This document shows, piece by piece, positions 88 to 42,921 of a DNA stretch of 64,000 nucleotides. The notes below the pieces were generated by a model. The model was not told where the DNA came from and searched no databases. It saw only the letters and a program-made list of their open reading frames with translations. The stretch is from Schaalia canis. Lineage in GTDB: Bacteria > Actinomycetota > Actinomycetes > Actinomycetales > Actinomycetaceae. Position 1 is the first letter of the stretch. Each line of letters opens with the position of its first letter. The translations under genes were made by a program, and so were the position numbers. Location of the stretch: NCBI RefSeq assembly GCF_003858455.1, contig NZ_RQZF01000002.1, forward strand, positions 326,686 to 390,685, given 5' to 3'.

Positions 88-160
88 GCACCCACATGTG
101 CCTCCACCGGATTCCACGGCCGAATGAGCTCAGTATTGCCTTGGAGTCACATGTAGGCGC
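88..160. repeat. Dispersed ~75-bp inverted-repeat element, copy 1
   Basis: The left arm GCACCCACATGTGCCTCCA (88-106) pairs with the inverse of the right arm at 141-160 (GCGCCTACATGTGACTCCAA). The roughly 35-base centre has no visible structure. This is a diverged member of the family that recurs across the window. Apart from it I see nothing in bases 1-235. Confidence 0.6.
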
Positions 161-235
161 CGCCATGCTTTTCACTGCGCTCAAATTAAGCTCAGACGAG
201 GCGTTGAGGTGGCGTCTGTTGACGCGCTCTGGTTT

Positions 236-2752
236 TTAGCTGACCTTTTCGACCTCAATAAGCACGGCTGTGCCGGGCAGGATATGCGGGGGACGGATTC
301 CCCACTCGCTCAATACCGCCCCGGGTACACAGGCACCTTCTTCGTTCCACCACTCTAGGTCAGAGCGGCATGAAGGATTGCGCAGGCTTTCATAGAGCTC
401 CGGCCCACCGTAGGGACGCACTCTGTAGAGAGCATCCGCCTCCAGCTCGGGTAGGCGCATCAGGCCGTAGGGGTAGTGTTCGGAAGTGTCACGAGCGGCA
501 AAGCACCACACCGACCAGCGCTCATCTGGGGAAACGAGTCCATCGAGTCGCACAGCAGGGTCGGTGATGTCAGCGTGGACGGCGCGTGCTCCCCACGCCG
601 GATTCTGGCTACTTTCAGGCAGCCCATTCTCGCCCGCGATCAGCGGATTTTGCGCTGACCATTCGCGTCGGGCCTGCGTGTAGAGGGCAATCCAGCGGCG
701 TAGGGGTGCCAGCTGTTCGTCGTCCATTGTCAGGATGTTCCACTCGATGCCGAGGTGTCCGCTGAAGGCTACCGAGGCGCGCGTGGCCAGTCGAGTGAAG
801 CGGCCGGTCATGTGCGAGGGTGATTCGGCAATGTGGGCGCCGATCATTTCCGGTGGAACCAGCAGGGAGGTGTGTCGTTGAATGTCGACTCTTTCCAAGG
901 GATCGGTGCAGTCTGATGCCCATACTCGGTCGGTTCGACTGAGGATGCCCAGGTCAATTCGACCTCCGCCTGAGGAGCAGGATTCAATCTCAAGGTGGCC
1001 GAATCGCTCCCGTAGGGCGTCAAGCAGTGCGTAGAGGGCAAGGGTTTGGCCGTGTACGGCCGGGCGACCCGTGTAAGGGGAGATTGCTTCGGTCACGAAA
1101 CGGTTGTGATCCCACTTGATGTAGTCGATTCCCAGCGCCTCAACAAGGGTGCTGATCTCTGTGTAGAGGTAGTCCCAGGCTTCAGGGTTGGCGAGGTCAA
1201 TGACGTACTGGTCGCGTCCCGGCAGAGGCAGACGTGAAGGTTCGGGGCGAAGCACCCATTCGGGGTGGGTTCGGGCAATGTCAGAGTCAAGGCTGATCAT
1301 TTCCGGCTCAAACCAGAGTCCGAACTCCATGCCAAGGGAGTGCACAAGCTCTGCGATGGCGTTGAGTCCTCGCGGCCAAACCTCGGTGTCAACCTGCCAG
1401 TCGCCAAGGGCTCGCGTGTCGTTTCGGCGGCCTTTGAACCATCCATCGTCGATGACGAAGCGTTCAACCCCCACGTGGGCGGCGCGTCGGGCGAGGTCCA
1501 TCATGGTCTGCTCGTCGTGGTTGAAGTAGACCGCTTCCCAGGTGTTGAGGGTGACGGGGCGGGGTCGGTTCACGAAGTGGGGGTGTTGGGCGCGCAGGCG
1601 GGCATGGTAGCGCGAGGCGATCTCGTTGAGTCCGTTTCCCCAGGAGGCAACGAGTTCGGGCGTGGTGTAGTGCTCTCCGTTCTGGAGCGTAATTTCGCCA
1701 GGATAGAGGAGTTCTCCTGCCCCGATGAGTCCATGCGTGTAGGGAGTACGGATGGCGAAATGTGTGCCGTTTCCACTCCAGGCCAGGTGCACAGCGTGGG
1801 TGCGTCCGTGTTCGAAGCTGAATCCGGGCTCTCCTGCGCTGATCAGGAGGCTCGTGTTGAAGTCGGGCCGTCCCATCCAGCTTTCTTTACTGAAGAATCC
1901 TTCAGTGAGGGGTTGGCGCTGGGGGGAGCGTTCACGCAGGTGGTGGCCTGTGTGTGTGAGAAGTTCTGTGGCGCCTGCGGGTAGCGGGAGGCTGAGCCAG
2001 AGGCGTCCGATGCTCAGGGGATCGTCTGAGCGGTTGATGAGGGTGGCGCGTTCACTGACGAGGCCGTGGGCGTCGACGGATAGATCGATGATGAGGTCAA
2101 TGTGGGCGGCTTCATCGGTGGCGTGGATGGTGCATCCGCCTGCCACAACGGGGGCGCTGTTGGGGCCTGAATCGTGCTGTGCGCTCCCACCTGTGAGCTC
2201 AGAGTCGTTTCCTGGTGTTTCAGGGGGGATGGCTGCGTTGGATTCACACCTGGGAGCGGAGGCAGTGCCGTGCTGAGGGGTGGAGGCGCCCAGGGGATGA
2301 GTGGAGGTGCTCAGGTGGCGAGTGGAGGTGCCCTGGGGGTAGGTGGAGGCGCCCAGGGGGTGAGGGTCGATGCGGATGGTGCGGAACGCTGGGAAGATTT
2401 CCCGGCCTTCGCGTTGGATGCTGATCAGTGGCGTGCCAGTCCAGGCTTCAGCCTGGGTGGGGAGCAGGCTCGGGTGTTCTGGCGCTTCCACGCCTGCACC
2501 GAGGATCTGGGCTTTTTGAGCGCGAAGGAGTGAGTTCTTCGCGGGCGAGGACAGCGTGCTCCCCTCCACCGTGTCCGCGTTGCCGGGCGTAGGGGTGCCA
2601 GCGTGACGGCCCAATAGGGACGAAGGGAATGCTGGCCCCCAGTAGCTGATGACCGGCAAACCATCACTTGGGCAGGACAGGACGAGGCTCGTTGCGGGGC
2701 GAGCGCTGGTCGCATCTGACGTGTGCGTGAGGTGGAGGGTGGAGGGGAGCAT
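236..2752 (-). CDS. Alpha-galactosidase, glycoside hydrolase family 36, with a repeat-derived insertion
   Basis: Hydrolyses terminal alpha-1,6-galactosides such as melibiose and raffinose; no signal peptide, so probably cytoplasmic. The GH36 signature is clear: YIKWDHNR with nucleophile Asp548, ESCSSGGGR, and WASDCTDP with the general acid/base Asp614. The spacing of 66 residues between the two catalytic Asp fits the family. At 838 residues it is about 100 longer than typical bacterial GH36 enzymes. The excess includes residues about 130-190, a Pro/Ser/Thr-rich stretch of four 7-residue repeats followed by the translation of a dispersed repeat element, all in frame. The gene starts 16 bases after the stop of the GH16 gene, with AGAGG upstream, so the two probably form an operon. 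Substrates are likely delivered by the neighbouring ABC transporter (inference). Whether the insertion is tolerated in the folded N-terminal domain is unknown. Confidence 0.9.
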   Translation of the reverse strand: MLPSTLHLTHTSDATSARPATSLVLSCPSDGLPVISYWGPAFPSSLLGRHAGTPTPGNADTVEGSTLSSPAKNSLLRAQKAQILGAGVEAPEHPSLLPTQAEAWTGTPLISIQREGREIFPAFRTIRIDPHPLGASTYPQGTSTRHLSTSTHPLGASTPQHGTASAPRCESNAAIPPETPGNDSELTGGSAQHDSGPNSAPVVAGGCTIHATDEAAHIDLIIDLSVDAHGLVSERATLINRSDDPLSIGRLWLSLPLPAGATELLTHTGHHLRERSPQRQPLTEGFFSKESWMGRPDFNTSLLISAGEPGFSFEHGRTHAVHLAWSGNGTHFAIRTPYTHGLIGAGELLYPGEITLQNGEHYTTPELVASWGNGLNEIASRYHARLRAQHPHFVNRPRPVTLNTWEAVYFNHDEQTMMDLARRAAHVGVERFVIDDGWFKGRRNDTRALGDWQVDTEVWPRGLNAIAELVHSLGMEFGLWFEPEMISLDSDIARTHPEWVLRPEPSRLPLPGRDQYVIDLANPEAWDYLYTEISTLVEALGIDYIKWDHNRFVTEAISPYTGRPAVHGQTLALYALLDALRERFGHLEIESCSSGGGRIDLGILSRTDRVWASDCTDPLERVDIQRHTSLLVPPEMIGAHIAESPSHMTGRFTRLATRASVAFSGHLGIEWNILTMDDEQLAPLRRWIALYTQARREWSAQNPLIAGENGLPESSQNPAWGARAVHADITDPAVRLDGLVSPDERWSVWCFAARDTSEHYPYGLMRLPELEADALYRVRPYGGPELYESLRNPSCRSDLEWWNEEGACVPGAVLSEWGIRPPHILPGTAVLIEVEKVS
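2183..2257. repeat. Dispersed ~75-bp inverted-repeat element, copy 2, inside the GH36 gene
   Basis: Arms GCTCCCACCTGTGAGCTC (from 2183) and GATTCACACCTGGGAGC (to 2257) are the outer arms of the family. It keeps the GH36 frame open and is translated as part of the extra N-terminal residues. Confidence 0.7.
2280..2363. repeat. Four 21-bp tandem repeats inside the GH36 gene
   Basis: Units start at 2280, 2301, 2322 and 2343, each beginning GTGGAGG. Being a multiple of three they encode 7-residue repeats (HPLGAST, YPQGTST, RHLSTST, HPLGAST) next to element copy 2. Confidence 0.85.
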
Positions 2753-2768
2753 GTTCGCCTCTACTGGT

Positions 2769-5735: not shown

Positions 5736-5754
5736 GGTTTTCCTTTTGTCAGTG

Positions 5755-5983: not shown

Positions 5984-6105
5984 GTATTCCAATCTCACTT
6001 GGAGCCGTTGACGAATCGTACGATCCGACAACGACGTCACATGGGACATCCAATGACACACAGGCAGCGCACCCGCGTAGCACAACACCCTTCAAGGAGG
6101 AAGGC

Positions 6106-11866: not shown

Positions 11867-12101
11867 ACCTGTTTTCCATGCGCTTCCCCCTCGCAGCCTC
11901 GGCGCCCTCATCCCCGCCAGCCCTTTGAGCGCCCTCGCTTGGCCTCACCGCCTTCATTTCTCCGCTCACCTCACTGGTCTCGCCGCCTTTGCTTCTCGCG
12001 TTCCCCTGGCTCTACCGGCGCCAGTGCCCCTAAGCTCCCAGGTGTGCGCCCACACCACCCCCCAAATCCACCTTTCAGCTCCACCAGCCCCAGCACTCCC
12101 C

Positions 12102-12177
12102 GGCTCCCTGATGTGCACTCACGCCCATTCCACCCCTATTCACCCCCTTTTTTCCCTTGAGCGCACACATGGGAGCC
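12102..12177. repeat. Dispersed ~75-bp inverted-repeat element, copy 3
   Basis: Left arm GGCTCCCTGATGTGCACTCA (12102) and right arm TGAGCGCACACATGGGAGCC (ending 12177) are nearly perfect inverses. Confidence 0.8.
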
Positions 12178-12248: not shown

Positions 12249-12325
12249 AGTGCCCAGATGTGCGACCGGACCAGATCCTCCCCCGTCGAACCCCTCTTGG
12301 CGCCTGCGCACACACGTGGGAGCCA
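12249..12325. repeat. Dispersed ~75-bp inverted-repeat element, copy 4
   Basis: Left arm contains GTGCCCAGATGTGCGACC; right arm GCGCACACACGTGGGAGCCA ends at 12325. It lies 70 bases after copy 3 and just before the ABC_ATPase gene. Confidence 0.65.
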
Positions 12326-12371: not shown

Positions 12372-14126
12372 ATGACTCCGCGCCCACACTCTTCGCCCGC
12401 TGGTAATGTTCGCCGCCCTTCCCGTCCAAAACAACGTCACACCGGCAGCGACCAGGACCTCATCAATCAGGCGATCCGTATTGATTCTCGCCCCTACGGT
12501 TTCTACGGCGATCTTCTTGGCGACTGGGACTACGGAGATTTCATCCTCCACATTGACCGCATCCAAGCCGACCCCTACGCACCGCCTTCCGCGATGCGAG
12601 TCACCGCCTCCCCTTCGGCAATGGGGCTACCAGAGCACGCCCTGAGCACCGACCAACGCCTGGCCACAGCCGACTACCTGGTGCGTTCCTTCGCGGCAGC
12701 AATCACCCGCAACTGCCCGTCGCGCGCACTCCACATTGCCCGCACCGGCCAGGAAATCCTTGAACGTAGCGCCTGCACGGTGACTCCCGATCGGGTTGAG
12801 ATCCGCTTCCAACTCCAACTTCCTGCGCGCGGGCGCACCATTATGGGGCGTGAAGCCGGACGCCTCCTTGACGTTGATCTACCGGATACCGTCATGGACA
12901 CCCTCGACTTCATCTCCGAAGATGCCGCCGATCACCTTGCAGGTTTGAACGCCCATATCCATACTTACGAGGACTACCGGGCTCTTATGGAAGCCCTCCG
13001 TGAGAACCAGTGGGTCGCTTTCGTAGCAGATGGTGCCGTGCTGGCCCGTCGTTCGGGCGTATCGGAGCATCCCCTCACTGATGCTGTGCCTTTCGAGAGC
13101 CCCGAATCCCTGGCCGCTACAGTCACCTTGCCCCATGCAGGGACGGTGCGTGGCATGGCAATCCCACCGGGGGTGACTGTGATTGCTGGCGGCGGCTACC
13201 ACGGTAAATCCACGCTGCTCAATGCCATCCAACGCGGCGTCTACGCCCACGTTCCAGGCGATGGACGCGAACTTGTGGCCACCACTGATGCAGCAATGAA
13301 GATTCGAGCCGCTGACGGTCGCGCGGTCACCGCCGTTGACGTCTCGGCCTTCATCTCTCACTTGCCCGCAGGGGCGGACACCTCGCGCTTCAGCACAGAG
13401 AATGCCTCCGGGTCGACCTCGCAGGCCGCATCCATCATGGAGGCCGTCGAAGCTGGCTCTCCCTTGCTCTTGCTTGATGAGGACACGTCGGCAACGAATC
13501 TTCTCATTCGCGACGCCAGGATGCGCGCGCTCATTGCGGCCGACAAGGAGCCGATCACTCCACTAGTTGACCGCATTCGTGCACTTTTTACAGAGTGCGG
13601 CGTGTCCACCATTATCGTGATGGGCGGGTCAGGTGATTACCTCGACGTGGCTGACACAGTGCTGATGCTCGATGAATACCACTGCCTGGATGTCACCGAG
13701 CGTGCTCGATCCATTAGCGCCAACCTTCCCCGCGAGGTCACTGCTCTGTCTGGTTTCCCCTCCTCACTGGCGCGTGTGCCTGTGCGCTCACGCGGAGGCG
13801 GGGATAAGCCTAAAACCAAGGCTTCCGGCCTGGATACGATCATCATTGATAAGACAACGGTTGACGTGTCAGACATTGAGCAAATTGTTGACACCGGCCA
13901 GACCGAAGCAATCGCGTGGATGCTGCGGGGCCTGCTGGAGGACTACGCTGACGCTCGCACTCCCCTGGCTGAACTCCTGGTGCGCTTGGAACGCACGGTG
14001 AACTCTGAAGGTTTGGACGCGGTGACCAAGTTCGGTGCCCGCCCCTATCCGGCGTTTCTTGTTCGGCCGCGTCCAGTGGACCTAGCGGCAGCACTGAACC
14101 GCTATCGAGCATTAAAGATCGCCTGA
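12372..14126 (+). CDS. ABC_ATPase-family protein (COG3044, MRB1590-like)
   Basis: 584 residues. The N-terminal segment (RIDSRPYGFYGDLLGDWDYG) and the central P-loop GGGYHGKSTLL (about residue 273) match the family annotated as predicted ATPases of the ABC class, related to trypanosomal MRB1590, which binds nucleic acid. Other ABC-type features are LLLDEDTSATNLL (Walker B) and a C-terminal domain with the DIEQIVDTGQTEAIAWML region. The physiological role in bacteria is not established. There is no Shine-Dalgarno; TAGGCT (12360-12365) lies six bases before the ATG, so the mRNA is probably leaderless. Two dispersed repeats precede it and one follows it. It appears to be a single-gene unit. Confidence 0.8.
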   Translation: MTPRPHSSPAGNVRRPSRPKQRHTGSDQDLINQAIRIDSRPYGFYGDLLGDWDYGDFILHIDRIQADPYAPPSAMRVTASPSAMGLPEHALSTDQRLATADYLVRSFAAAITRNCPSRALHIARTGQEILERSACTVTPDRVEIRFQLQLPARGRTIMGREAGRLLDVDLPDTVMDTLDFISEDAADHLAGLNAHIHTYEDYRALMEALRENQWVAFVADGAVLARRSGVSEHPLTDAVPFESPESLAATVTLPHAGTVRGMAIPPGVTVIAGGGYHGKSTLLNAIQRGVYAHVPGDGRELVATTDAAMKIRAADGRAVTAVDVSAFISHLPAGADTSRFSTENASGSTSQAASIMEAVEAGSPLLLLDEDTSATNLLIRDARMRALIAADKEPITPLVDRIRALFTECGVSTIIVMGGSGDYLDVADTVLMLDEYHCLDVTERARSISANLPREVTALSGFPSSLARVPVRSRGGGDKPKTKASGLDTIIIDKTTVDVSDIEQIVDTGQTEAIAWMLRGLLEDYADARTPLAELLVRLERTVNSEGLDAVTKFGARPYPAFLVRPRPVDLAAALNRYRALKIA

Positions 14127-14154: not shown

Positions 14155-14259
14155 GCCCAGCCTCATGCTGCGGCTCCCAGGTGTGCGCCCAGCATGAGGC
14201 TGGGCGCCGGAATAGATGCCATCACCGCCAGATTCTGCCTGGGCGCACAGCTCGGCGCC
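14155..14259. repeat. Dispersed inverted-repeat element, copy 5, with a nested 16-bp perfect hairpin
   Basis: Family arms are GGCTCCCAGGTGTGCGCCCA (from 14172) and CTGGGCGCACAGCTCGGCGCC (to about 14258). Overlapping it, GCCCAGCCTCATGCTG (14155-14170) is a perfect inverse of 14190-14205. This second hairpin could end transcription of the ABC_ATPase gene (stop at 14126). Confidence 0.7.
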
Positions 14260-14389: not shown

Positions 14390-15112
14390 ATGAATACTTC
14401 AGCCAACATTGTCAGTCTGCGAGACCTCACCAAGATCTACGGCGAAGGTGACACCCGAGTGGTTGCCCTTGACTCCGTCAACGTCGACTTTGGACGAGGC
14501 CAATTCACCGCCATCATGGGCCCCTCTGGTTCAGGCAAGTCCACCATGCTTCACATGCTCGCAGGACTCGACCACCCCACCTCTGGCACCGTCAGCATCG
14601 AGAATCAGGTCATTACTTCCCTCAAGGATGATGCTCTCACCGCCGTGCGCCGCGACCGCATCGGCTTCGTGTTCCAGAGCTTTAACCTGGTCCCCACCCT
14701 CAACGCCCACGACAACATCACCTTGCCCCTGCGTTTGGCCGGCCAAAAGGTTGATGAGGAATGGTTCAACGGGATTGTCTCCATCCTGGGCTTGAGTGAG
14801 CGCCTCACCCACCGCCCCTCCGAACTGTCAGGCGGCCAACAACAGCGCGTCGCCGTCGCCCGTGCCCTCGTCTCCAAGCCTGCGGTGATCGTCGCTGATG
14901 AGCCCACCGGTAACCTCGACTCACATTCCTCCCGCGAGGTCCTCAGCCTGCTGCGCCAGTCTGTCGATGAGCTCGGCCAAAGCGTCATTATGGTCACCCA
15001 CGACGGTGCTTCAGCCGCAATCGCTGACCGAGTGCTCGTGGTGCGTGACGGCCAGATCGTTGCCGACCTCAACGCTCCCTCCGAGATGTCCATTGCGGAG
15101 GCCCTCCGATGA
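14390..15112 (+). CDS. ABC transporter ATP-binding protein (MacB/LolD type)
   Basis: 240 residues. Walker A GPSGSGKST, Q-loop FVFQSFNLVPTL, signature LSGGQQQRVAVARAL, Walker B VIVADEPTGNLDSH and the H-loop VTHD are all intact. This subclass drives FtsX-like permeases that act on lipoproteins, peptides or envelope substrates rather than importing solutes. The stop overlaps the start of the permease gene (ATGA), so the pair is translated together. No sensor kinase lies beside it. Confidence 0.92.
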   Translation: MNTSANIVSLRDLTKIYGEGDTRVVALDSVNVDFGRGQFTAIMGPSGSGKSTMLHMLAGLDHPTSGTVSIENQVITSLKDDALTAVRRDRIGFVFQSFNLVPTLNAHDNITLPLRLAGQKVDEEWFNGIVSILGLSERLTHRPSELSGGQQQRVAVARALVSKPAVIVADEPTGNLDSHSSREVLSLLRQSVDELGQSVIMVTHDGASAAIADRVLVVRDGQIVADLNAPSEMSIAEALR

Positions 15113-17622
15113 GCGTCACCCGTGATTTGATTGCGGCGAATGTGCGTAGCCATGCCCGCCGCTACGTCGCCACCGGCGTTGCCGTGGCGATCTCCATGGC
15201 CTTCGTCCTGGCCTCTCTCACCTTGACCACGGCACTCACCACCGTTCTTAGCCGTTCAATCACCGCCCAGTATCAGGGGGCGGCAGCCCTTGTCAGCGTG
15301 GATCCTAGGATCGAAACTGATGAACCCATCGATCTGGTTGACCTGCGCCCCACGATCGAGAAAACCACCGGCGTGACGGCCATCGCGCCGATGACCTTCT
15401 CCGTCTTGGAGTTCCACAAGGACTCCCAGCGCTCCACCCGCCAGATGTCACCGATCCTGCCCGAACCCTTCTTCCAGCCCAGCCTGGTTGAAGGCAAGAT
15501 GCCGACCTCCAATAGTGAGGTCGCGATCGATACTCAGCTTGCGCAGACTCTCAAGGTCACGGTTGGAGACACCATCGATGTCCGAGCAGCGTACTCATCT
15601 GAGCGTTACCAGCAGGTGACTGTCACCGGCACGGTGGCCAGCGCCCTATCTTTCCTACCGACTTCGTACGCTACCGAGGGCGCGATCAGTGAGATCGCCG
15701 GTGAATTGCGCCCATTGAGCTACCTTGTTGCCGTGGATGCACAGCAGGGCACCCCCAGCCTCGAACAGCAAAACGCCCTCGTCGACGCCCTACGTGAGGC
15801 TCTCCCTACACACCCCGCCCTGGAGATAGAAAGCGGCGATGCTGCCCGCCAGGCCGCCTTGGATTCAGCCAAGCTCGATGCGACCACCACGCAGGCAATC
15901 ATTATGGTCTTCCCAGTGATTGCTGTGGCTGTTTCGCTCATCGTGGTCTCCACGACCTTCCAGGTTGTCCTCCACCAGCGCAAACGCGAGCTTGCCCTCC
16001 TGCGCACCCTGGGCGCCCGCTCCTCGCAAGTGCGCCGCATTATCATCGCTGAGACCCTGGTGGTGGGCCTGCTCGCCTCCGTTGTGGCTGTTCTTGCCGG
16101 TGCTACGCTATCGGCAATCGGCCTGTGGGCGTCTGGCTTGGCCATCTCCTTCGTGGACGCGGTGACAATGATTTCACCCCTCAACGTGCTCGTGACCTTA
16201 GCTTTAGGCACCGCTTTGACCCTGCTGGTGGGCGTGCGCCCTGCCCTCGGCGTGGCACGCATTTCGCCAATGGCTGCCCTCTCCCCCATTGACGAGGCCG
16301 CCGCCGTTTCCTCGCGCGCCTCGTGGGTGAAGTTCATTGTCGGTGGCCTACTCACTGTCGGGGCGCTAGCCGCCATGTATGTCGGTGCACAGAACGAGTC
16401 GGAGAGCCTGCGTTTTTCGGTTCTTCTGGCGGCCTCTGTAGTGGCTCTGGTTGGATTCTTGGTGTTTATCAGCCCACTCATGCCGACCTTCACCCGCTCC
16501 TTTGGCCTGTTCGGCCGCTCGATTGTGAGCGTCATGGCCCGCGAAAACACCACACGCAACCCGGGCCGCACCTCAGCAACCGGCGTGGCAATTGTCATTG
16601 GCGTGACCCTGGTGTCAACGATGCTGGTAGGTGCGGCGTCGCTACGCGCCACCCTGGATGGCGAGGTCGACGCGCAGCGTCCCTTGGACCTGACCGCTCA
16701 GATGCGCGAGGGGGAGCTCCCCTCGGACGTGCGTTCAGCAGTGCCCGGGATTTCGGGTGTGGAGGCCGTCGTTGAGGGCCGCTTTGCTGAAGGCATACTT
16801 ACCAAAACTGGCGCGAGCGAGGCAGAGAAGGCGCAAGAGGTGCGCCTGAGCATTGTTGGCCAGCCGGATCTGAACATTGTGTCGCACTCTCCAATTGCAC
16901 TGCTGAGCGATGATGAAGTGCTGCTCCCGGACAGTTTCGGGGTCGATGACGGGCACTCCATGACCGTGTGTGTGGGTGAGGATCTGTCAGCCTGCCGCGA
17001 GTTCACCGCGACGCTGTCTGAGACCACCCCATACGCGGCAATGATCAGTGAAAAGGCGCTGCTGGAGCTGGCCCCCAATGCGGAAGTCAACAGGGTACAT
17101 GTCAAACTCGCTGAGGGTGCGGACGCCACGCAGGTGCAAAGCGACCTGGCGACGCTTGATGAGACGCTCATAGTGGAGGGCGCAGCCCTGGAACGCCAGA
17201 TGTACACGCGCATGATCAACATTGCGTTGGGTATGGTCGTGGCGCTGTTGGGCGTGTCTGTGCTGGTGTCTTTGGTGGGTGTCACCAATACCTTGTCCCT
17301 GTCGGTGCGCGAGCGCACCCGTGAAAACGGGCTACTTCGAGCGCTTGGTTTGAGCCGCAAGCAAATGCGCCGCATGTTGGCGTGGGGGGCAGTATTTATT
17401 GCCCTAACAGCGACGGTTATCGGCCTTGCTCTTGGCGTGTTCTTCGGGTGGATTGGCATGCTCGCCCTGCCGGTTCAGGTTGAGACCCTGGTGATCGAAG
17501 TGCCGTGGCTGCAGCTTGCTGGCGTGGTTCTCGTATCGCTGATGTCGGCTGTGGTGGCCGCATGGCTGCCGGGGCGTCGAGCTGCGAAGACTTCTCCGGT
17601 GGTGGCCCTGGCTGACCAGTAG
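15109..17622 (+). CDS. FtsX-like ABC transporter permease
   Basis: 837 residues with two FtsX permease modules: a first helix near the N terminus, an extracytoplasmic domain of about 210 residues, three helices (about 265-390), a middle helix pair, a second extracytoplasmic domain (about 515-700), and a final three-helix bundle. ERTRENGLLRALGLSRKQMR is the typical cytosolic loop. Partner of the ATPase at 14390. Substrate unknown; antimicrobial-peptide or lipoprotein handling are typical roles for the family. A dispersed repeat follows 25 bases after the stop. Confidence 0.9.
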   Translation: MSVTRDLIAANVRSHARRYVATGVAVAISMAFVLASLTLTTALTTVLSRSITAQYQGAAALVSVDPRIETDEPIDLVDLRPTIEKTTGVTAIAPMTFSVLEFHKDSQRSTRQMSPILPEPFFQPSLVEGKMPTSNSEVAIDTQLAQTLKVTVGDTIDVRAAYSSERYQQVTVTGTVASALSFLPTSYATEGAISEIAGELRPLSYLVAVDAQQGTPSLEQQNALVDALREALPTHPALEIESGDAARQAALDSAKLDATTTQAIIMVFPVIAVAVSLIVVSTTFQVVLHQRKRELALLRTLGARSSQVRRIIIAETLVVGLLASVVAVLAGATLSAIGLWASGLAISFVDAVTMISPLNVLVTLALGTALTLLVGVRPALGVARISPMAALSPIDEAAAVSSRASWVKFIVGGLLTVGALAAMYVGAQNESESLRFSVLLAASVVALVGFLVFISPLMPTFTRSFGLFGRSIVSVMARENTTRNPGRTSATGVAIVIGVTLVSTMLVGAASLRATLDGEVDAQRPLDLTAQMREGELPSDVRSAVPGISGVEAVVEGRFAEGILTKTGASEAEKAQEVRLSIVGQPDLNIVSHSPIALLSDDEVLLPDSFGVDDGHSMTVCVGEDLSACREFTATLSETTPYAAMISEKALLELAPNAEVNRVHVKLAEGADATQVQSDLATLDETLIVEGAALERQMYTRMINIALGMVVALLGVSVLVSLVGVTNTLSLSVRERTRENGLLRALGLSRKQMRRMLAWGAVFIALTATVIGLALGVFFGWIGMLALPVQVETLVIEVPWLQLAGVVLVSLMSAVVAAWLPGRRAAKTSPVVALADQ

Positions 17623-17646: not shown

Positions 17647-17721
17647 GGCTCCCGCGTGTGCCTCCAGGCCAATCTGCGCCTCGTGCGCTCCTTCAATGGC
17701 TTGATTGCACACGCGGGAGCC
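17647..17721. repeat. Dispersed ~75-bp inverted-repeat element, copy 6, abutting a promoter
   Basis: GGCTCCCGCGTGTGC (17647-17661) is the perfect inverse of 17707-17721. The right end is directly followed by the TAGACT -10 box (17722-17727) of the S9 peptidase gene, so the element fills the -35 region. Confidence 0.85.
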
Positions 17722-20025: not shown

Positions 20026-20153
20026 AGGCTGCGAGCTACGGCGCACCCGTTTTTGCTACTCGTTCTGGCGTGGCTTGTGGCGCTCCTACTGTCTTGCCAC
20101 GTGTGCACTGCCCGGCTTATCGGCCTTATCACGGATTGCCTGAGCGTTGACGC

Positions 20154-20226
20154 GCGCCCGCATGTGCGCCCACGGCATCTGAGAGGCATTTTGTCTCTGA
20201 GAGTCTTTGAGCGCACACGTGGGAGC
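20154..20226. repeat. Dispersed ~75-bp inverted-repeat element, copy 7
   Basis: Left arm GCGCCCGCATGTGCGCCCA (from 20154) and right arm TGAGCGCACACGTGGGAGCT (to 20226). Bases 20256-20340 beyond it are a degenerate low-complexity array of GAGGCAGGCTTGGC-like units; no gene is seen between 20026 and 20522. Confidence 0.8.
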
Positions 20227-20387
20227 TAAGGGACGGAGCAACGGGAGGGACCGAGAACCTCTTGAGGCAGGCGCATTAAAGCAGGCTTGGCGAGGCAGAC
20301 ACGGTGAGGCAGGCTTGGCAAGGCAGAAGTGCTGAGGCAACTATGCCGGTGCACGTGGGCTGACACAGGTGGGCGCGGTCTGGACAT

Positions 20388-24344: not shown

Positions 24345-24385
24345 CTCAGTTTCACCCTCTTCTTCCGCTCGTTCTGCATTAACCT

Positions 24386-24460
24386 GCGCCCGCGTGTACA
24401 TCCAAGGCCTATACGGCCCAGGCTCCCGGCCCGCGTGTGCTGGACGCACACGCGGGCACC
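24386..24460. repeat. Dispersed inverted-repeat element, copy 8, with an inner perfect hairpin
   Basis: Outer arms are GCGCCCGCGTGTACATCC (from 24386) and GGACGCACACGCGGGCACC (to 24460). Inside, GCCCGCGTGTGC (24429-24440) pairs perfectly with 24446-24457. It ends 12 bases before the -10-like box of the RNase HI gene. Confidence 0.75.
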
Positions 24461-24485
24461 AGGATCGACCACTACCATGGCAGCC

Positions 24486-25532
24486 ATGACAATTCGGGCA
24501 GCGGTAGATGGTTCGGCTCTAGGAAATCCCGGCCCCGCCGGTTGGGCGTGGGTCGTCTCCCCCACCTGCTGGGACGCGGGCGGGTGGGATCATGGCACCA
24601 ATAACCTGGGCGAGCTCACCGCAGTCCTTGAACTTTTGCGCGCAACACGCGATGCCGACCTTGTCGACGAGCCTCTCCACATCCTGGCGGATTCGCAGTA
24701 CGCGATTAACGTCATCACGAAGTGGATGCACGGCTGGAAGAAGAAAGGCTGGGTCAAGACCGATAAGAAGCCCATTGCCAACCTTGAGGTCATTCAAGAG
24801 ATTGATCGGCTTATCGCAGGACGCCAGGTAACTTTTGAATGGGTGCGAGGCCACACCGGCCACCCGATGAATGAACGCGCTGATGATCTGGCGCGCGGTG
24901 CTGCCGAGACCCACCAAAGAGGCGGCGTCGTCCAAGGTGGGCCCGGTTTTAATGGTGCCGCTGGAATTACGGATGCTTCAGCATCCATCAATAGCACGGA
25001 AACCGTCGACGAAGATACAGCTCCCTTCTCTGCGGCTGCCAATGCACCCAACCCTCTGTCCTCTCCTTCAGGCTCCGGCGTGTGCGCCCACAACGATTCT
25101 GCTTTTAATCGCCCCCCAGAAAGCGTCGGCGCACATCTGGGAGCCGATATTGAAACCGCCCCCACTTCCCCAGCCCTCCCCACTCTCACGCGCAGCGATG
25201 TTCTCGCTGCTCAAAAGGCCGTCATCACCGCATGGACCAGTGCTCTCCCCGATGAAGTCACCCCGTGGCTCGCCTCGGGCTTTGAACGCGTGTGGCCCAA
25301 TGGGGCGGTAACAGACACCTTCTACGGCCCCTGCCCACCGCATGTAAGTATCAGCCGAATTCATGCTCATGAGGCTGGCAATACGATGCTCACCCGCTTT
25401 GAGCTGAGCTGGAGCACCGGCTCCTCTGTTGAAACAGGCCTGTGGATTCCCACCGCAGAAGGCCCGCGCCTCCTTCACTATCAATCCACTATCGTCTCCT
25501 CCTCCACCACCAAGACAGACAACAACCCTTAA
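24486..25532 (+). CDS. Ribonuclease HI fused to a C-terminal domain of unknown function
   Basis: 348 residues. The RNase HI domain (1-140) is complete: Asp8 (VDGSALGNPG), Glu43 (NNLGELTAV), Asp69 (ILADSQYA), His123 (RGHTGHP) and Asp133 (NERADDLA), with a basic handle WMHGWKKKGW. It removes RNA from RNA-DNA hybrids. Residues 145-232 are a low-complexity linker, of which about 196-220 are encoded by a dispersed repeat element. The C-terminal domain (about 235-340) resembles a small ketosteroid-isomerase/DUF4440-like fold by pattern (TAWTSALPDEVTPWLASGF); this is tentative. I chose the ATG at 24486 because TACCAT (24473-24478) lies 7 bases upstream, fitting the leaderless pattern; the ATG at 24477 is an alternative. 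Confidence 0.85.
   Translation: MTIRAAVDGSALGNPGPAGWAWVVSPTCWDAGGWDHGTNNLGELTAVLELLRATRDADLVDEPLHILADSQYAINVITKWMHGWKKKGWVKTDKKPIANLEVIQEIDRLIAGRQVTFEWVRGHTGHPMNERADDLARGAAETHQRGGVVQGGPGFNGAAGITDASASINSTETVDEDTAPFSAAANAPNPLSSPSGSGVCAHNDSAFNRPPESVGAHLGADIETAPTSPALPTLTRSDVLAAQKAVITAWTSALPDEVTPWLASGFERVWPNGAVTDTFYGPCPPHVSISRIHAHEAGNTMLTRFELSWSTGSSVETGLWIPTAEGPRLLHYQSTIVSSSTTKTDNNP
25071..25144. repeat. Dispersed ~75-bp inverted-repeat element, copy 9, inside the RNase HI gene
   Basis: Left arm GGCTCCGGCGTGTGCGCCCA (25071-25090) and right arm GGCGCACATCTGGGAGCC (to 25144). The reading frame runs through it, encoding part of the linker between the two domains. Confidence 0.85.
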
Positions 25533-26848: not shown

Positions 26849-26926
26849 GGTTCCCAGGTGTGCGCCCAGCAAGAAACAGCCTCTGTTGGCAAGGCTTTCT
26901 CCGTTGGACTCACACCTGGGCGCACG
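26849..26926. repeat. Dispersed ~75-bp inverted-repeat element, copy 10
   Basis: Left arm GGTTCCCAGGTGTGCGCCCA (from 26849); right arm TTGGACTCACACCTGGGCGC ends near 26926. It lies about 35 bases upstream of the -10 box of the next gene. Confidence 0.85.
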
Positions 26927-33277: not shown

Positions 33278-33354
33278 GCGCTCCCGCGTGTGCGCCCAGA
33301 CGCGAAAGTGCCGTCAAGGCATCCGTTTTCACCCTGAGCTCACACCTGGGCGCC
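33278..33354. repeat. Dispersed ~75-bp inverted-repeat element, copy 11
   Basis: Left arm GCGCTCCCGCGTGTGCGCCC (from 33278) and right arm TGAGCTCACACCTGGGCGCC (to 33354). It occupies the gap 33108-33483 between convergent genes, where I see no other feature. Confidence 0.85.
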
Positions 33355-36440: not shown

Positions 36441-36455
36441 GAAAGGAACACTCGC

Positions 36456-36914: not shown

Positions 36915-38054
36915 ATGCCCCACGCGCTCCCACTCCTCCTGGCCTCCCCCGAACGCCCTCGCCAAACACCTGGCACCACCCACCCGATCAGCGCGCCTCC
37001 GCTCCCAGGTGCAGGCCCCGCGTGGTTCCCTTCCGTCATGGGCACTGGCATCCTGGCAGGACTACTGCAAACCCACGCCCACACCATCCCCGGCGCGCAC
37101 TTCCTCGCTCCCGCCACGCTCATTATCTGCTGGCTGCTACTGCTTGGATTAACGCTGACCTTCACCCTGCGCTGTCTCACCCAACCTGGTGTGCTGCGCG
37201 CAGCCCTCACGCTTCCGGCGCAAATCCCCTTCTGGGGGACGGTTTCAATGGGCATCCTCTCAGCAGGATCGTCAACAACCATGGTCCTCCCTGCACACCT
37301 GCCCGGCAGCGATACTCTCGCCTGGCAGATCGACACAGTCACCTGGACAATCGGCACCATCATCGGTGTGCTCTCTGCCCTGTACTTTGGAACGCGCCTC
37401 GTAGGCCCCAATCTGGGCGACCCCACACCCGTATGGGGCCTCGCCGTTGTGGGTCCGATGGTGTCGGCAACTACCGGCGCCCTCCTGGCACAACACGTCC
37501 CCACCCAATTTGCGCCCTACATCCTCATGGCCGCACTGAGTTGTTTCTTCCTGGCCCTCTCCTTGGGGCTCGTCATCTTCGCCTACGCCTACCAGCGCCA
37601 CTGGCGCACCGCTCCCATCCCGCTGGTCGCCTCCGCCTCCTCCTGGATTCCACTCGGACTCGTCGGCCAATCCACAGCCGCCGTTCAAGCCATGGCCCAC
37701 ACTGCCGCCCCCATGACATCACCCGAATTCGCCCACGCACTGGCACACATGGCCAATGTCTATGGCTACGTCATGTTCTTTGTCGGCACACCGTTGATTG
37801 CCTGGGCAACCCTGGTGACTCTGCGCGGATTCCAACACCGCATGCCCTTCACCCCCGGCTGGTGGGCACTCACCTTCCCTATCGGCACCCTGGCTCTGGG
37901 AGCCACCCTGCTGGGTCGCGGCACCGGCTACCCCGCCTTCACCGGCTGCGGCGTGGCGGCGACCGTCATCCTCATTGGCACGGTCACGCTCTGCCTGGTG
38001 GCAAGTGCCCACGCAGTTACTCGGGCCGTCCTGCGCCCGACATCCCTTAGTTAG
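36915..38054 (+). CDS. TDT-family (TehA/SLAC1-like) transporter
   Basis: 379 residues with about ten transmembrane helices. The opening PAWFPSVMGTGILAGLL is the typical first helix of the tellurite-resistance/dicarboxylate transporter family, which includes the malate transporter Mae1, the sulfite exporter Ssu1 and the anion channel SLAC1. The N-terminal 35 residues are polar and Pro-rich. Substrate not deducible. No ribosome-binding site is evident before the ATG. A bidirectional terminator lies far downstream at 38504. Confidence 0.85.
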   Translation: MPHALPLLLASPERPRQTPGTTHPISAPPLPGAGPAWFPSVMGTGILAGLLQTHAHTIPGAHFLAPATLIICWLLLLGLTLTFTLRCLTQPGVLRAALTLPAQIPFWGTVSMGILSAGSSTTMVLPAHLPGSDTLAWQIDTVTWTIGTIIGVLSALYFGTRLVGPNLGDPTPVWGLAVVGPMVSATTGALLAQHVPTQFAPYILMAALSCFFLALSLGLVIFAYAYQRHWRTAPIPLVASASSWIPLGLVGQSTAAVQAMAHTAAPMTSPEFAHALAHMANVYGYVMFFVGTPLIAWATLVTLRGFQHRMPFTPGWWALTFPIGTLALGATLLGRGTGYPAFTGCGVAATVILIGTVTLCLVASAHAVTRAVLRPTSLS

Positions 38055-38159
38055 GAGCGCCCCAGTCGGCGACGCCCAGGCAATCGACGCCCAGGCAAGC
38101 GGTGCTCAATCAAATGCCACCCGCCGAGACAGGCTCCTGCGGCTCCGATCCGCTCCTCT

Positions 38160-38234
38160 GGCTCCCAGGTGTGAGTCCAGGCGATTTTGCCCTCCCAGAG
38201 CCGCGAAAACCGGCTGAGCGCACACGCGGGAGCC
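38160..38234. repeat. Dispersed ~75-bp inverted-repeat element, copy 12
   Basis: Left arm GGCTCCCAGGTGTGAGTCCA (from 38160) and right arm TGAGCGCACACGCGGGAGCC (to 38234). It lies between the convergent TDT transporter and response-regulator genes. Confidence 0.9.
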
Positions 38235-38342
38235 GAGGGCCAGAACTGAGAGCCGACGACAGGGCGCTGACGGCAGAAAGCGTGAGCAGGAGGCAGGGAT
38301 CCAACAACAGGAGCAGGGAACAACGGGCGGAGTGCAGGGGCA

Positions 38343-38390
38343 GGGACCCGACGGTATTAGCACCAAGGCAGGGACTCGACGGTATTAGCA
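38343..38390. repeat. 20-bp direct repeat, 28-base period
   Basis: GGGACCCGACGGTATTAGCA (38343) recurs with one change at 38371. The preceding 70 bases are rich in GCAGGG motifs. Confidence 0.75.
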
Positions 38391-38503
38391 GGACCCAGGG
38401 CAAGGGCAGAGAGGCGCAGGTGCACGCAAAACGCGCGATCATACGCAGGCTCTGTCACTGCCTGACACCACACCTGCCCATCGAGTACACGGCTACACAC
38501 AAA

Positions 38504-38544
38504 GCCCGGTGTGGTGGACTCACCCAGAGTCCACCACACCGGGC
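38504..38544. terminator. Bidirectional terminator, perfect 17-bp stem
   Basis: GCCCGGTGTGGTGGACT (38504-38520) pairs perfectly with 38528-38544 around a 7-base loop, between convergent genes. Confidence 0.85.
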
Positions 38545-38610
38545 CCAAGGCTCCAGCAGCTATCTGCTCAGCCTCTCAGCTACATGGTGCAGCCTCATGC
38601 AGCTATCCGA

Positions 38611-39081
38611 TCAGCGCAGCGCCTCCATGACGCGCACACCATCAAGCACAGGCAGATACGGCAGTGGGTCCACACCGGCCTGCAGCACATAGGTGGTCAA
38701 CTGATCTCGTACCACAGCCACCAGGTCTTCAGGCTGCCAGGGCTTCGCAATGTAGTGATCCAGGCCCGCCACATTGAGAGCGCGGATCGTGTCCTCCTGA
38801 TCGGCCTGGCCGGTCACCAACACTGTGCGCGCGTCAGCGAAACGCTCATCGGATGCCAGTTCCACCAGGAAATCTACACCGGTCTTACCGGGCAGACGAT
38901 GGTCAGAGAGCACAACAGCGAGCTCATCCCCATCGGCGTAGATCTCTTCAAGAGCGGCCCACGCATCATCAACGGTGTCAGCAGTCTCCAGGCGAATCTT
39001 GTCCCAGAAACCCTCTAAGTCACGCTCAAGAGCCTCACGGACTTCGACTTCGTCCTCAAGGGAGAGAATCGTCAGTGTCAT
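38611..39081 (-). CDS. Response regulator, receiver domain only
   Basis: 156 residues from the ATG at 39081 (AAGGAGG upstream). The CheY-like receiver has acidic residues LEDE, phospho-acceptor Asp60 (VLSDHRLPG), the Thr switch (VLVTGQAD) and Lys (YIAKPWQ). There is no DNA-binding output domain; a short C-terminal extension ends in PYLPVLDGVRVMEALR. It is the last gene of a transporter-kinase-regulator unit. Without an output domain it may relay to another partner or act by protein contact (inference). Confidence 0.9.
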   Translation of the reverse strand: MTLTILSLEDEVEVREALERDLEGFWDKIRLETADTVDDAWAALEEIYADGDELAVVLSDHRLPGKTGVDFLVELASDERFADARTVLVTGQADQEDTIRALNVAGLDHYIAKPWQPEDLVAVVRDQLTTYVLQAGVDPLPYLPVLDGVRVMEALR

Positions 39082-39115
39082 TTCTGCGCCTCCTTCATTG
39101 TGTCGGGGGTGGGTG

Positions 39116-41095
39116 TCACTCTGCGGGAGTGGGAGTGGCTGATGTGGCGATCGGGGCACTATAGGCTGGTAGGGCCACGATCATGCGGGTACGGCCGGGG
39201 GTTGAATCAACAGTAATCGAACCGCCCACGTCTTCCACGATGGAACGCGAGATCGCCATGCCCATCCCCAGGCCGTAACGCACGCGCCCAGCCTTCGTGG
39301 TGAAGTGCGGCTCGTAGATCCGCTCCAGCACGGAGTCAGGAATACCCGGACCATTATCAGTAATCGTCACGGTCACGGCCCCATCCCCGGCTTCCACAGC
39401 CACATGGATGAGCGGCTCACCCTCACCACGAGCGGGCATCTCCCCGCGTGCGGCAGCGTCTTCACGCTCATCATCAATGGCTTCAGCGGCGTTCACCAGC
39501 AGGTTCGTCCACACCTGCTGCAACTTGGCAGGATGGGCCAGCACTGCGGGCACATCCTCGTAGTAGCGTTCGACCTCAATGCCGCGCAGCCGGTGGTTCG
39601 TCAGTCGCAGCACGTCATCTAAGCCCTCACGCACGTCTACGGCTTTGAGATCTTCACTGTCGGGCCGGGCGTAGCCCTTGAGGCTGGCGGTCAGTTCAAT
39701 GACGCGCTCGGAAGCCGATAGAACCGACCGCAGCGACGAGCCCGCTCTGGCTCCAAGTTCCACGGCGGGCAGTTCCTTGCCGCGCCGCTTGGTGAGTTTA
39801 CGCGCCTCAGCAGGGTCCTCCACCCCCGCCTGGACGAGGCGCCGCGCGAGGGCACGATCGCCAACGACCTCGTAAATCTGGCGGACGAGTTCGCGTTCTT
39901 GCGCGGTGGAGCGCACGGCCTGCGTTCGGGCCCGACGCATGGCGGTGTGCGCGGCAGCCATCGCCGGGGCGGTTTCCAGCAGTGCGTCGAGGTCCTCGCC
40001 GAGGTGTTCGGCGGCGCGCACGAGGGCGGTCACGGGGTTGTTGAGTTCATGGGCGATGCCGGCGGAGAGTTCGCCAAGCATGGCAAAACGTGTGCGTTCA
40101 ACGAGCTCAGCGCGTGTGTTTTTCAGGTCCTCAAGGGTTTCGGCCAGGTGGGCGCGCTCTTCTTCGAGGTCCTCGGCCAGCACCGCGTTTTCCATGTGGA
40201 GATCCTCAGCGCGGATGAGGCGCCGGGTGAGGGATTGGATCGCCAGGACTGCCAGCGTGCCCGCAACGGAAGGCTTTTCATCAATGACCATGCGCAGCTG
40301 CTCATTGGTCAGGCGCACCACCTGCGCGGAAGTAGTGGTGGTTGCGGTGAAGAATGCTTTCTCGTTGCGCGTGAGGGACACGAGGCCGATGAGCAGGCCC
40401 GAGGTCGCGTGGTGGAGCAAGAGTTCGCCGCGATCGGTTTCACGCCGCAGGCTCACCTGACCATCAAGCACCAGGTGCACGGCGGCGATCGAGGTGTTCT
40501 GACGGGTAAGGTCAACGCCTGCGGGAATGCGGATGCGTGGGCGGCGCCCGATGACTTCTTCGACGCCTTCAAGGAGTTCACGCACCATGTCGTACTCGTC
40601 GGCACCTAGGCCTTGGAGTAGCGGGCCTTGGACGGCGCGTTTTGGCGCGGGGCCAATGAGTTCAATAATGCTCTCGCGGCTGAGGCCTTCTTGAAGGAAG
40701 TAGGCCACCATCACCTGGTAGGCCTGGCCAAGGAAGAGCCCCAGGGTGCAGGGGGCGCGCATGACGGCAGCGAGGTGTCCGGCGCTGGTCAGGGTGGCCA
40801 GGTCAGAGTGTTCATCCCGGTCGGTCAGGAGGATCCACTGCGTGTCTTGCAGGAGGGGCATGTGAGCAACCCCGGCGAAAGCCTCGTCAATGTTAGGCAC
40901 CTCTGAGGACACCATGCCCAGGGCAACGTGGTCGGCGGGCAGGAGCGTGGAGTTCCACCGGGTAAGTTCCTCCCCGTCGGCCACGCAGACAAGGTCAATT
41001 TGGGGGAATGCGCGCTCCCAGTCGGCGACAATGCTCGACACAATGCCGCGCGAGTCGTCACCCACAAGGATGACGTGAACCTGGGAGAGCTTCAC
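39116..41095 (-). CDS. Sensor histidine kinase with a cyclic-nucleotide-binding-like domain
   Basis: 659 residues, no membrane segment. Residues 1-140 resemble a receiver-like fold (VHVILVGDDSRGIVSSI). About 180-300 is a cNMP-binding-type beta-roll (VLDGQVSLRRETDRGELLLHH). A coiled coil (ENAVLAEDLEEERAHLAETL) leads to HisKA with phospho-acceptor His349 (GIAHELNNPV) and an HATPase domain (NLLVNAAEAI, DNGPGIP, YGLGMGMAIS). GTG start directly after the TGA stop of the transporter gene, so the two are probably coupled. With the adjacent receiver protein it forms a cytosolic two-component pair, perhaps sensing transport or metabolic state linked to the DASS substrate (inference). Confidence 0.88.
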   Translation of the reverse strand: MKLSQVHVILVGDDSRGIVSSIVADWERAFPQIDLVCVADGEELTRWNSTLLPADHVALGMVSSEVPNIDEAFAGVAHMPLLQDTQWILLTDRDEHSDLATLTSAGHLAAVMRAPCTLGLFLGQAYQVMVAYFLQEGLSRESIIELIGPAPKRAVQGPLLQGLGADEYDMVRELLEGVEEVIGRRPRIRIPAGVDLTRQNTSIAAVHLVLDGQVSLRRETDRGELLLHHATSGLLIGLVSLTRNEKAFFTATTTTSAQVVRLTNEQLRMVIDEKPSVAGTLAVLAIQSLTRRLIRAEDLHMENAVLAEDLEEERAHLAETLEDLKNTRAELVERTRFAMLGELSAGIAHELNNPVTALVRAAEHLGEDLDALLETAPAMAAAHTAMRRARTQAVRSTAQERELVRQIYEVVGDRALARRLVQAGVEDPAEARKLTKRRGKELPAVELGARAGSSLRSVLSASERVIELTASLKGYARPDSEDLKAVDVREGLDDVLRLTNHRLRGIEVERYYEDVPAVLAHPAKLQQVWTNLLVNAAEAIDDEREDAAARGEMPARGEGEPLIHVAVEAGDGAVTVTITDNGPGIPDSVLERIYEPHFTTKAGRVRYGLGMGMAISRSIVEDVGGSITVDSTPGRTRMIVALPAYSAPIATSATPTPAE

Positions 41096-42559
<1,464 letters not shown>

Positions 42560-42783
42560 AGAGTTGACACCTCACAGTGCTGGCCGAAGCGATGTGGTCA
42601 GAACGATGTCGATCATAGGCGAGTTCGGTGTGATCAGGGAGATATTTTCTGACTTTTGAAACCCCGGCCAGGGTGACCTAGTTCGCTTGTCGGGTTTTTC
42701 AGGGTTTTTATGGGCCTTTCGTCGCAAGTTCTGATGTGATGCAGGCTTGTCCGATCCGCCCCTTTCCCCACATGGACCGTTCT

Positions 42784-42921
42784 GCCTCCCGCATATGCTT
42801 CCATGCGACGCACGCACCACCGCCAAGGCCACCTCGTAGCTCCCTTGCTTCCCGGGTGTGCTTCCAACGGCTTAGGGGGCTTTCCGGGAGGCATAACATG
42901 CCTGGGCGCACATGCGGGAGC
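42784..42921. repeat. Dispersed inverted-repeat element, copy 13, with an extra upstream arm
   Basis: The proper element is 42847-42921: left arm GCTTCCCGGGTGTGCTTCCA and right arm TGGGCGCACATGCGGGAGC. An additional left-type arm (CCTCCCGCATATGCTTCCA) at 42785 suggests a partial tandem copy. The rest of 42560-43294 has no gene I can support. Confidence 0.75.

What the first reader, a model, noticed from the sequence alone, without database searches (positions are those of the whole stretch)
88..42921. A dispersed family of about 75-bp inverted-repeat elements
At least 12-13 loci share outer arms close to GGCTCCCAGGTGTGCGCCCA and its inverse TGAGCGCACACGTGGGAGCC. Good copies are 2183-2257, 12102-12177, 14172-14259, 17647-17721, 20154-20226, 24386-24460, 25071-25144, 26849-26926, 33278-33354, 38160-38234 and 42847-42921; 88-160 and 12249-12325 are more diverged. 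Total length is nearly constant (73-78 in most), yet the central 35 or so bases differ completely between copies. Conserved arms with fixed spacing but a free centre suggest selection on paired protein-binding sites or on a long stem, not simple sequence duplication. They could be REP/BIME-like elements mobilised by a transposase elsewhere, or sites for a nucleoid or segregation protein. I do not recognise this as a described family.
Basis: seen in the sequence. Interest (0 to 1): 0.8.

Follow-up and report, generated by a model that had tools for sequence, protein, structure and literature searches.

The report
Paired DNA sites clustered around oriC
Two sister bacteria of the genus Schaalia carry some 40-50 copies each of a 75-base-pair paired DNA site, packed around the replication origin and kept in the same places through evolution; they are likely docking points for an unknown protein that would bend the DNA and organise the origin region.

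Summary
The element family is real: a bipartite site of 75-76 bp, two inverted 22-bp arms, (g)GCkCCCrssTGTGmryyCA, 53 or 54 bp apart in 88 of 95 copies. This genome has 43 copies. 41 of 42 covariance-model loci at E<=0.01 lie in about 16% of the chromosome, on both sides of dnaA. A sister species, Schaalia sp. Marseille-Q2122, has 52; one of its contigs has dnaA inside the array. No other of 213 family genomes matched at E<=0.001. All 39 copies with both flanks mapped have a copy at the same place in the sister, although centres and flanks have diverged. Arm positions TGT show 0 changes in 54 ortholog arms; free positions show up to 28. The two arms do not covary, so this is not a selected stem or a REPIN. 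The "free" centre is not free: A/T peaks at the dyad and 10 bp either side (period about 10.5 bp), as in DNA bent around a protein. Canonical parS and one ParB exist besides. Best reading: origin-domain binding sites for an unidentified DNA-bending protein, comparable in logic to matS/MatP or ram/RacA but with a new site design. Protein and function are inferred, not shown.

The parts
87..161 (.). paired-arm element 1 (arms 87-108 and 140-161)
   Evidence: ortholog in sister species at C9:103388
2182..2258 (.). paired-arm element 2, inside the GH36 melibiase gene 236-2752(-)
   Evidence: counterpart not testable, sister contig ends there
12102..12177 (.). paired-arm element 3
12249..12324 (.). 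paired-arm element 4 (diverged left arm)
14172..14259 (.). paired-arm element 5, long variant (arm spacing 66); the sister has two elements here, so it may be a fusion of two
17647..17721 (.). paired-arm element 6
20153..20227 (.). paired-arm element 7, between convergent genes
24385..24460 (.). paired-arm element 8
25071..25145 (.). paired-arm element 9, in a variable linker of the RNase H-domain gene 24435-25532(+)
26849..26924 (.). paired-arm element 10
33279..33354 (.). paired-arm element 11, between convergent genes
38160..38234 (.). paired-arm element 12
42847..42922 (.). paired-arm element 13, between divergent genes; three neighbouring copies at this place in the sister species
57093..57168 (.). 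weak, diverged 14th copy
   Evidence: 25.0 bits; E 0.108
12033..12054 (+). lone strong arm
   Evidence: 26.4 bits; no partner
15732..15753 (-). lone arm inside the gene 15109-17622
   Evidence: 18.3 bits

Best explanation
The elements are 75-76-bp bipartite sites, clustered within about 240 kb of oriC in two sister Schaalia species and held in place by selection on their arms, that are likely bound by an as yet unidentified DNA-bending protein which would mark and organise the origin domain. Shown: two asymmetric 22-bp arms in inverted orientation; distance 53-54 bp (about five helical turns); strong selection on the arms at each site; no selection for pairing between arms; A/T at the dyad and 10 bp either side, with G/C between; clustering on both sides of dnaA; presence besides canonical parS and one ParB. 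Inferred: a protein dimer or tetramer contacts both arms on one face of the helix and bends or wraps the 31-32-bp centre. Untested: that bound sites are bridged or tethered, as MatP does at Ter and RacA does near the B. subtilis origin, so that the origin region is condensed, positioned or kept apart.
For: Whole-genome search: 42 loci at E<=0.01 after merging strands (89 rows at E<=1); 41 lie in C2:224-391 kb, C24, C7 and C76:1-54 kb, about 16% of the genome (bounds drawn after seeing the hits), and 1 on C57; none in the 587-kb contig C1 at that threshold, one weak hit there at E 0.02 (P values). dnaA is on C24 and, in the sister, inside the array on contig C8 (24 elements from -91 to +54 kb of dnaA). 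Close orthologues of a C7 gene are 31-100 kb from dnaA in the 5 relatives where both share a contig; orthologues of a C76 gene are 133-217 kb away in 8 of 9 such relatives and 311 kb in the ninth, G013. Spacing 53 or 54 in 88 of 95. Ortholog positions: 39 of 39 mappable G000 elements have one in the sister; in reverse 42 of 47. In 27 one-to-one pairs arms are 78.5% identical, centres 59.6%, flanks 62.8%; changes at arm positions 11-13 are 0 of 54 against 28 at positions 1 and 21; observed arm scores 24.0 and 25.4 bits against 5.4 expected under 20% unconstrained change. Arms do not covary. Centre periodicity: amplitude 4.81 at 10.3 bp against 0.0 +/- 0.2 in 1000 shuffles of the centres, profile alike in both genomes, absent outside the arms. 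parS and ParB present and separate. In G015, one of three other members of the genus scanned de novo, an unrelated paired family (about 100 bp) also has A/T peaks at the dyad and about 10 bp away.
Against: No binding protein has been found; of 68 origin-region ORFs that match the sister but not the fetched regions of three relatives, the 10 scanned gave no obvious candidate (one Fur-type regulator, DNA-repair and other enzymes, wall and PH-domain proteins, one unknown). No experiment. The system was not seen in the other 211 family genomes searched (with strict filters), so it is not a conserved necessity. In this genome elements are absent within about 22 kb of dnaA, uneven between the two sides (28 left, 14 right) and, apart from one weak copy, missing between -22 and -93 kb. 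Contig order beyond C2-C24 rests on the sister and on relatives. 20 arms at >=15 bits have no counted partner, against 190 in pairs. The ortholog pairs were picked as scoring pairs, which biases the arm scores upward.
Confidence: 0.6

Rival explanations
1. A REPIN/REP or other miniature mobile element family, two inverted repeats around a spacer, moved by a RAYT or an IS transposase and now old.
For: Inverted doublet with a less conserved spacer of fixed length resembles REPINs (passages of PMC3116915). Local duplicates exist in the sister (for example C8:32539/32742). Elements in the HrpA-type and RNase H genes sit in variable stretches. At the sister-only site C8:35618 the interval between the mapped flanks is 137 bp shorter in G000, so an insertion or deletion is not excluded there.
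Against: No compensatory changes; within-element arm identity is not above between-element identity (0.654 vs 0.670 and 0.692 vs 0.709); no dominant exact copy; clustering in 16% of the genome; of the 5 sister-only sites one is a decayed copy, one colinear without similarity, one half missing and two unreadable, none a clean empty site; arms kept by selection site by site.
Confidence: 0.12
2. Paired operators of a transcription factor (loop-forming repressor) that happens to control many origin-proximal genes.
For: Helical spacing and a bendable centre fit a repressor loop; 24 of 43 copies are intergenic by simple ORF calling; the window holds several sugar-use genes.
Against: Copies lie between convergent genes and inside genes as well as upstream (of 43, 5 convergent, 9 divergent, 10 tandem, 19 overlapping an ORF, some of these ORFs spurious); the gene functions seen are diverse; restriction to the origin region is not expected of a regulon.
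Confidence: 0.15
3. A DNA or RNA stem-loop (terminator-like, cruciform or single-stranded recombination substrate) conserved for its fold.
For: Most of the 8 window copies folded do better than shuffles (z -7.4 to -0.6; 8 of 13 were folded).
Against: Folding follows from the arms being inverted; pair-by-pair counts show no covariation and position 9 prefers to mismatch (26 matches vs 44.4 expected). No Rfam family at gathering score.
Confidence: 0.04
4. Gyrase or topoisomerase sites, as BIMEs are, needed where replication starts most often.
For: Phased A/T and G/C around a dyad is expected for wrapped DNA (recalled).
Against: The rhythm stops at the arms, and highly sequence-specific arms with fixed spacing are not a known gyrase feature (recalled); found in two species only.
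Confidence: 0.06

Closest known systems
matS sites bound by MatP (E. coli Ter macrodomain)
   Same: dispersed, domain-restricted, palindromic sites found first in silico; 23 copies in one chromosome domain (passages of PMC3116907)
   Different: matS is 13 bp and marks Ter; here 75-76 bp, two arms with a phased centre, around oriC; binder unknown
ram sites bound by RacA (B. subtilis)
   Same: [quoted passage not shown] RacA tethers the chromosome at the poles (passages of PMC6593407)
   Different: ram also occurs over the rest of the chromosome; sequence and architecture differ (recalled); no RacA sought here
parS/ParB
   Same: origin-proximal
   Different: canonical parS present separately, 4 copies in about 2 kb, 6-8 kb from dnaA; arms are not parS
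REPINs (RAYT-mobilised REP doublets)
   Same: inverted doublet with a fixed-length, less conserved spacer
   Different: no hairpin covariation, no master copy, no clear sign of mobility, origin-restricted
MaoP/maoS (E. coli Ori macrodomain)
   Same: acts on the Ori domain (start of the abstract of PMC5441646, in the listing)
   Different: recalled: a single maoS site, not an array

Membership tests
REP/REPIN | hairpin with compensatory changes | tested here: not met
   76.9% paired vs 77.9% in shuffles;
REP/REPIN | many near-identical copies of one short master sequence | tested here: not met
   83 distinct of 86 19-bp arms in G000, 89 of 104 in G001
REP/REPIN | dispersal over extragenic space of the whole genome | tested here: not met
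   41 of 42 in about 16% of the genome
REP/REPIN | cognate RAYT transposase | not tested
   no genome-wide search; none among the 30 window proteins scanned with Pfam
MITE / IS-derived element | clean empty sites and target duplications | tested here: inconclusive
   5 sister-only sites examined, none clean, two unreadable; at one of these the G000 interval is 137 bp shorter; two species only
parS | TGTTTCACGTGAAACA-like 16-bp palindrome | tested here: not met
   canonical parS found elsewhere, C24:63.8-65.5 kb
domain-organising site arrays (matS, ram, Noc or SlmA sites) | multiple dispersed copies restricted to or enriched in one chromosome domain | tested here: met
domain-organising site arrays (matS, ram, Noc or SlmA sites) | selection on the site independent of neighbouring sequence | tested here: met
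domain-organising site arrays (matS, ram, Noc or SlmA sites) | a dedicated binding protein and an effect on chromosome layout | not testable with these tools
   no candidate found; no ParB paralog of Noc type: one PF02195 match each in G000 and G001 at E<=0.001; MatP and RacA were not searched for

The most novel reading that the evidence does not exclude
A previously undescribed origin-macrodomain system: an array of 75-bp 'bacterial nucleosome-like' seats, each with two recognition arms five helical turns apart and a selected bendable centre, wraps a clade-specific protein around which the origin domain is folded, in addition to ParABS. The unrelated paired family in another Schaalia (arms CACACRATG, about 100 bp, A/T at the dyad and about 10 bp away, 11 of 19 copies within about 210 kb of oriC) would be a second case of the same design with other arms, so that the recognition sequence turns over quickly while the design stays.
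Probability: 0.35. Interest if true: 0.88.

Novelty: new variant of a known kind. Interest (0 to 1): 0.72.

Why it matters
Site arrays that define a chromosome domain are known in few bacteria, and for the origin side mostly parS and ram (recalled). An array of long, helically phased double sites, present in two species and not found in the rest of the family, would show that origin-domain organisers can arise recently, and gives about 40 ready-made, position-conserved sites per genome with which to fish out the protein. It also shows that a 'variable' spacer can be under selection for shape rather than sequence.

Tried and rejected
Stem/covariance reading: rejected. Mobile-element reading: no clean empty site among 5 sister-only sites, two of them unreadable. 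parS or a Noc-type ParB paralog. Rfam: no match at gathering score. Strand polarity of the elements relative to replication: position 15 gives C-left 26 versus A-left 10 on the left side, but is mixed on the right and not independent between orthologs; no claim. De novo search for analogous paired motifs near oriC in three relatives: exact words were too insensitive; gapped words recovered the known family in G000 and G001 (z 22.6 and 31.1), a CRISPR-like array in G004, tandem 23-bp repeats in G013 and an unrelated paired family in G015. The collection-wide pattern (fits 52 of the 95 known) gave 23 stretches: 19 from Marseille-Q2122, 3 from Aeromicrobium and 1 Pseudomonadota MAG; the last four reach only 8-18 bits for both arms together, and L072 is a tight hairpin, so they are set aside. 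Candidate binder: 68 of 353 called ORFs in the fetched G000 DNA (C2 below 224 kb left out) match the sister but not the fetched regions of three relatives; 10 of the 68 were scanned without an obvious candidate. Literature: seven searches listed nothing that describes this family by title or abstract start; the library holds open-licence papers only, and of the listed papers I read passages of three.
Full report
Observation. Each of the 13 listed loci has two inverted arms. A matrix refined on both genomes finds 97 pairs at >=22 bits in the fetched DNA and none in one base-shuffled copy. For the pairs at >=28 bits, 95 in all, the arm spacing is 54 (53 pairs), 53 (35), 55 (4), 52, 56 and 66 (1 each). 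For later counts I used the 95 pairs at >=30 bits: 43 in this genome (G000) and 52 in its relative G001. The arm is (g)GCkCCCrssTGTGmryyCA. TGT is invariant in all 190 arms and the following G in all but one; the arms were picked by score, which favours this.

Where they are. The window is C2:326686-390685 of a 76-contig, 2.58-Mb assembly, and C2 ends with the window. A covariance model of the 13 copies gives 89 rows at E<=1 in the whole genome, counting both strands. Merged, 42 loci reach E<=0.01. 41 of them lie in C2 beyond 224 kb, C24, C7 and the first 54 kb of C76; the other is on C57. None is on C1 (587 kb) at that threshold, one weak hit there having E 0.02. The tool scored 150 of 1306 first-look candidates, so weak copies may be missed, and the bounds of the region were drawn after seeing the hits. 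dnaA is at C24:71.8 kb here and at C8:100.6 kb in G001. In G001 one contig, C8, holds 24 elements from -91 to +54 kb of dnaA and spans the C2-C24 junction. Close orthologues of a C7 gene (64-68% identical) are known in 8 relatives; in the 5 where gene and dnaA share a contig (G004, G006, G012, G013, G020) they are 31-100 kb apart. For a C76 gene the distance is 133-217 kb in 8 of the 9 relatives with both on one contig, and 311 kb in G013. With the contigs so ordered, 42 of the 43 G000 elements lie from -238 to +182 kb of dnaA; the C57 copy could not be placed, and C24 next to C7 is not shown by any contig.

Who has them. G001 is Schaalia sp. Marseille-Q2122. A sequence-only model from 150 aligned matches finds 2 of 213 family genomes (own included) at E<=0.001, under stricter filters and with 21 candidates scored per genome. 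In 84,980 species genomes a strict pattern that fits 52 of the 95 known copies hit only Marseille-Q2122 plus four weak places; the window's own genome may be left out of that collection.

Selection on the arms. For 39 of 43 G000 elements both flanks map to the fetched sister DNA, and all 39 have an element there; 4 could not be mapped. In reverse, 42 of 52 have one, 5 do not and 5 could not be mapped. 'There' means within the interval between the flanks plus 150 bp; for three elements that interval exceeds 1 kb. The sister DNA was fetched because it holds elements, which favours this count, but coincidence over some 400 bp at one element per 4-5 kb would give roughly one in ten (estimate). In 27 one-to-one pairs arms are 78.5% identical (unrelated arms 68.2%), centres 59.6% (unrelated 48.3%) and 40-bp flanks 62.8%. 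12 of the 39 were left out: 11 because either genome has neighbouring copies, and C76:857 without reason. Changes per arm position, of 54: 28, 7, 6, 20, 2, 0, 8, 21, 17, 23, 0, 0, 0, 1, 15, 20, 23, 12, 4, 1, 28, 20. With 20% unconstrained change the arm score would fall to 5.4 bits; it is 24.0 and 25.4. Choosing pairs by score biases these upward, though the 39 of 39 leaves little room for lost copies. Of the 5 sister-only sites, one is a decayed copy of nearly equal length, one is colinear without similarity, one is half missing and two do not align across the element; at one of the latter, C8:35618, the G000 interval is 137 bp shorter. Seven genes that hold elements were compared with relatives. 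In the HrpA-type helicase two of three elements lie in a 260-residue stretch not aligned in G004 and G015 and the third in a poorly conserved stretch; the RNase H element is in a variable linker; the element in the C76 gene at 357-1016 (a response regulator by its look, not scanned) overlaps conserved residues without an insertion in that part; the other four could not be judged.

Not a stem. At most arm positions left and right arms agree about as often as expected; position 9 agrees less often (26 vs 44.4; 61 of 87 C/G elements are mixed, P 2e-4, orthologs counted singly). Pair counting on the 150-row alignment, many rows being both strands of one element, gives 76.9% paired cells against 77.9% in shuffles. 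Single copies fold well because the arms are inverted (8 of 13 window copies folded, z -7.4 to -0.6).

The centre has a shape. Averaged over 88 copies and both arms, A/T is 0.86 and 0.90 (G000, G001) at position 28 and 0.70 and 0.67 at the dyad (position 38), against 0.16 and 0.13 at position 33. The dyad-phased signal is greatest at 10.3-10.5 bp (4.8 against 0.0 +/- 0.2, largest of 1000 shuffles 0.73) and is absent outside the arms. TGTG lies about 25.5 bp, 2.4 turns, from the dyad, so its major groove would face the same side as the A/T minor grooves (inference). A rigid spacing, specific arms and a bendable centre point to one protein complex around which the DNA bends.

Function. Canonical parS (4 copies, one with a mismatch, 6-8 kb from dnaA) and an ordinary ParB are present, and there is no ParB paralog at E<=0.001, so this is an additional origin-proximal site system. 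Arrays that mark a domain are known for Ter (matS, 23 copies; passages of PMC3116907) and for the B. subtilis origin region (ram; passages of PMC6593407). I take the present array to work like these: protein-bound sites that organise or tether the origin domain. That step is inferred. Membership in either family is not claimed; no MatP or RacA was searched for.

A possible second case. G015 has 19 copies of CACACRATG...CATYGTGTG, 11 of them within about 210 kb of its origin and 8 elsewhere. In the 18 fetched (length 97-101), A/T is 0.94 at the dyad and 0.67-0.69 nine to ten bp away; z is 5.9-6.3 at 10.5-11 bp but also 4-5 at 8-10 bp. Some of its copies share their centre, so the test is less independent.

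Noticed in passing
G015 C1 (for example 12489-12588, 2411715-2411814; loci L095, L105, L158-L165): Unrelated paired-arm family CACACRATG...CATYGTGTG, total about 100 bp, 19 copies genome-wide, 11 within about 210 kb of oriC, A/T at the dyad and about 10 bp away.
   Followed up: partly
L115 and L117 (G013 C1:2514585-2515850, 2551526-2551850): Short tandem arrays of a 23-bp unit containing CGAAGTCCG, in opposite orientations, in the origin region of G013.
   Followed up: no
L136-L137 (G004 C1:59578-60500): A CRISPR-like array with 64-bp period in G004, found by the paired-word scan.
   Followed up: no
L017:9953-11171 (G000 C7): Three elements in one HrpA-type helicase gene, two of them in a 260-residue stretch not aligned in G004 and G015; two encode SAPxC near one end and all three xHAG at the other.
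   Followed up: partly
L019:4991-5145 and L044:12522-12688: Lone inverted arms about 133 bp apart inside an alpha-L-fucosidase gene of G000 and at the matching place in G001 (there with a second right arm); spacing unlike the family.
   Followed up: partly
all elements, arm positions 9 and 15: Position 9 is C in one arm and G in the other more often than expected (61 of 87), and position 15 shows a weak left-right bias on the left replichore; a hidden polarity or avoidance of perfect palindromes is possible.
   Followed up: partly
L072:4072-4129, L075:4319-4394, L079:4989-5060: Aeromicrobium inverted repeats sharing the core GCGCACATCTGGG or a near match; L072 is a hairpin (28-nt arms, 89% complementary, 2-nt loop), perhaps a REP-like family.
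   Followed up: partly
window 14172-14259: Long element (66-bp arm spacing) where the sister has two elements, perhaps a deletion fusion of a left arm and a right arm.
   Followed up: partly
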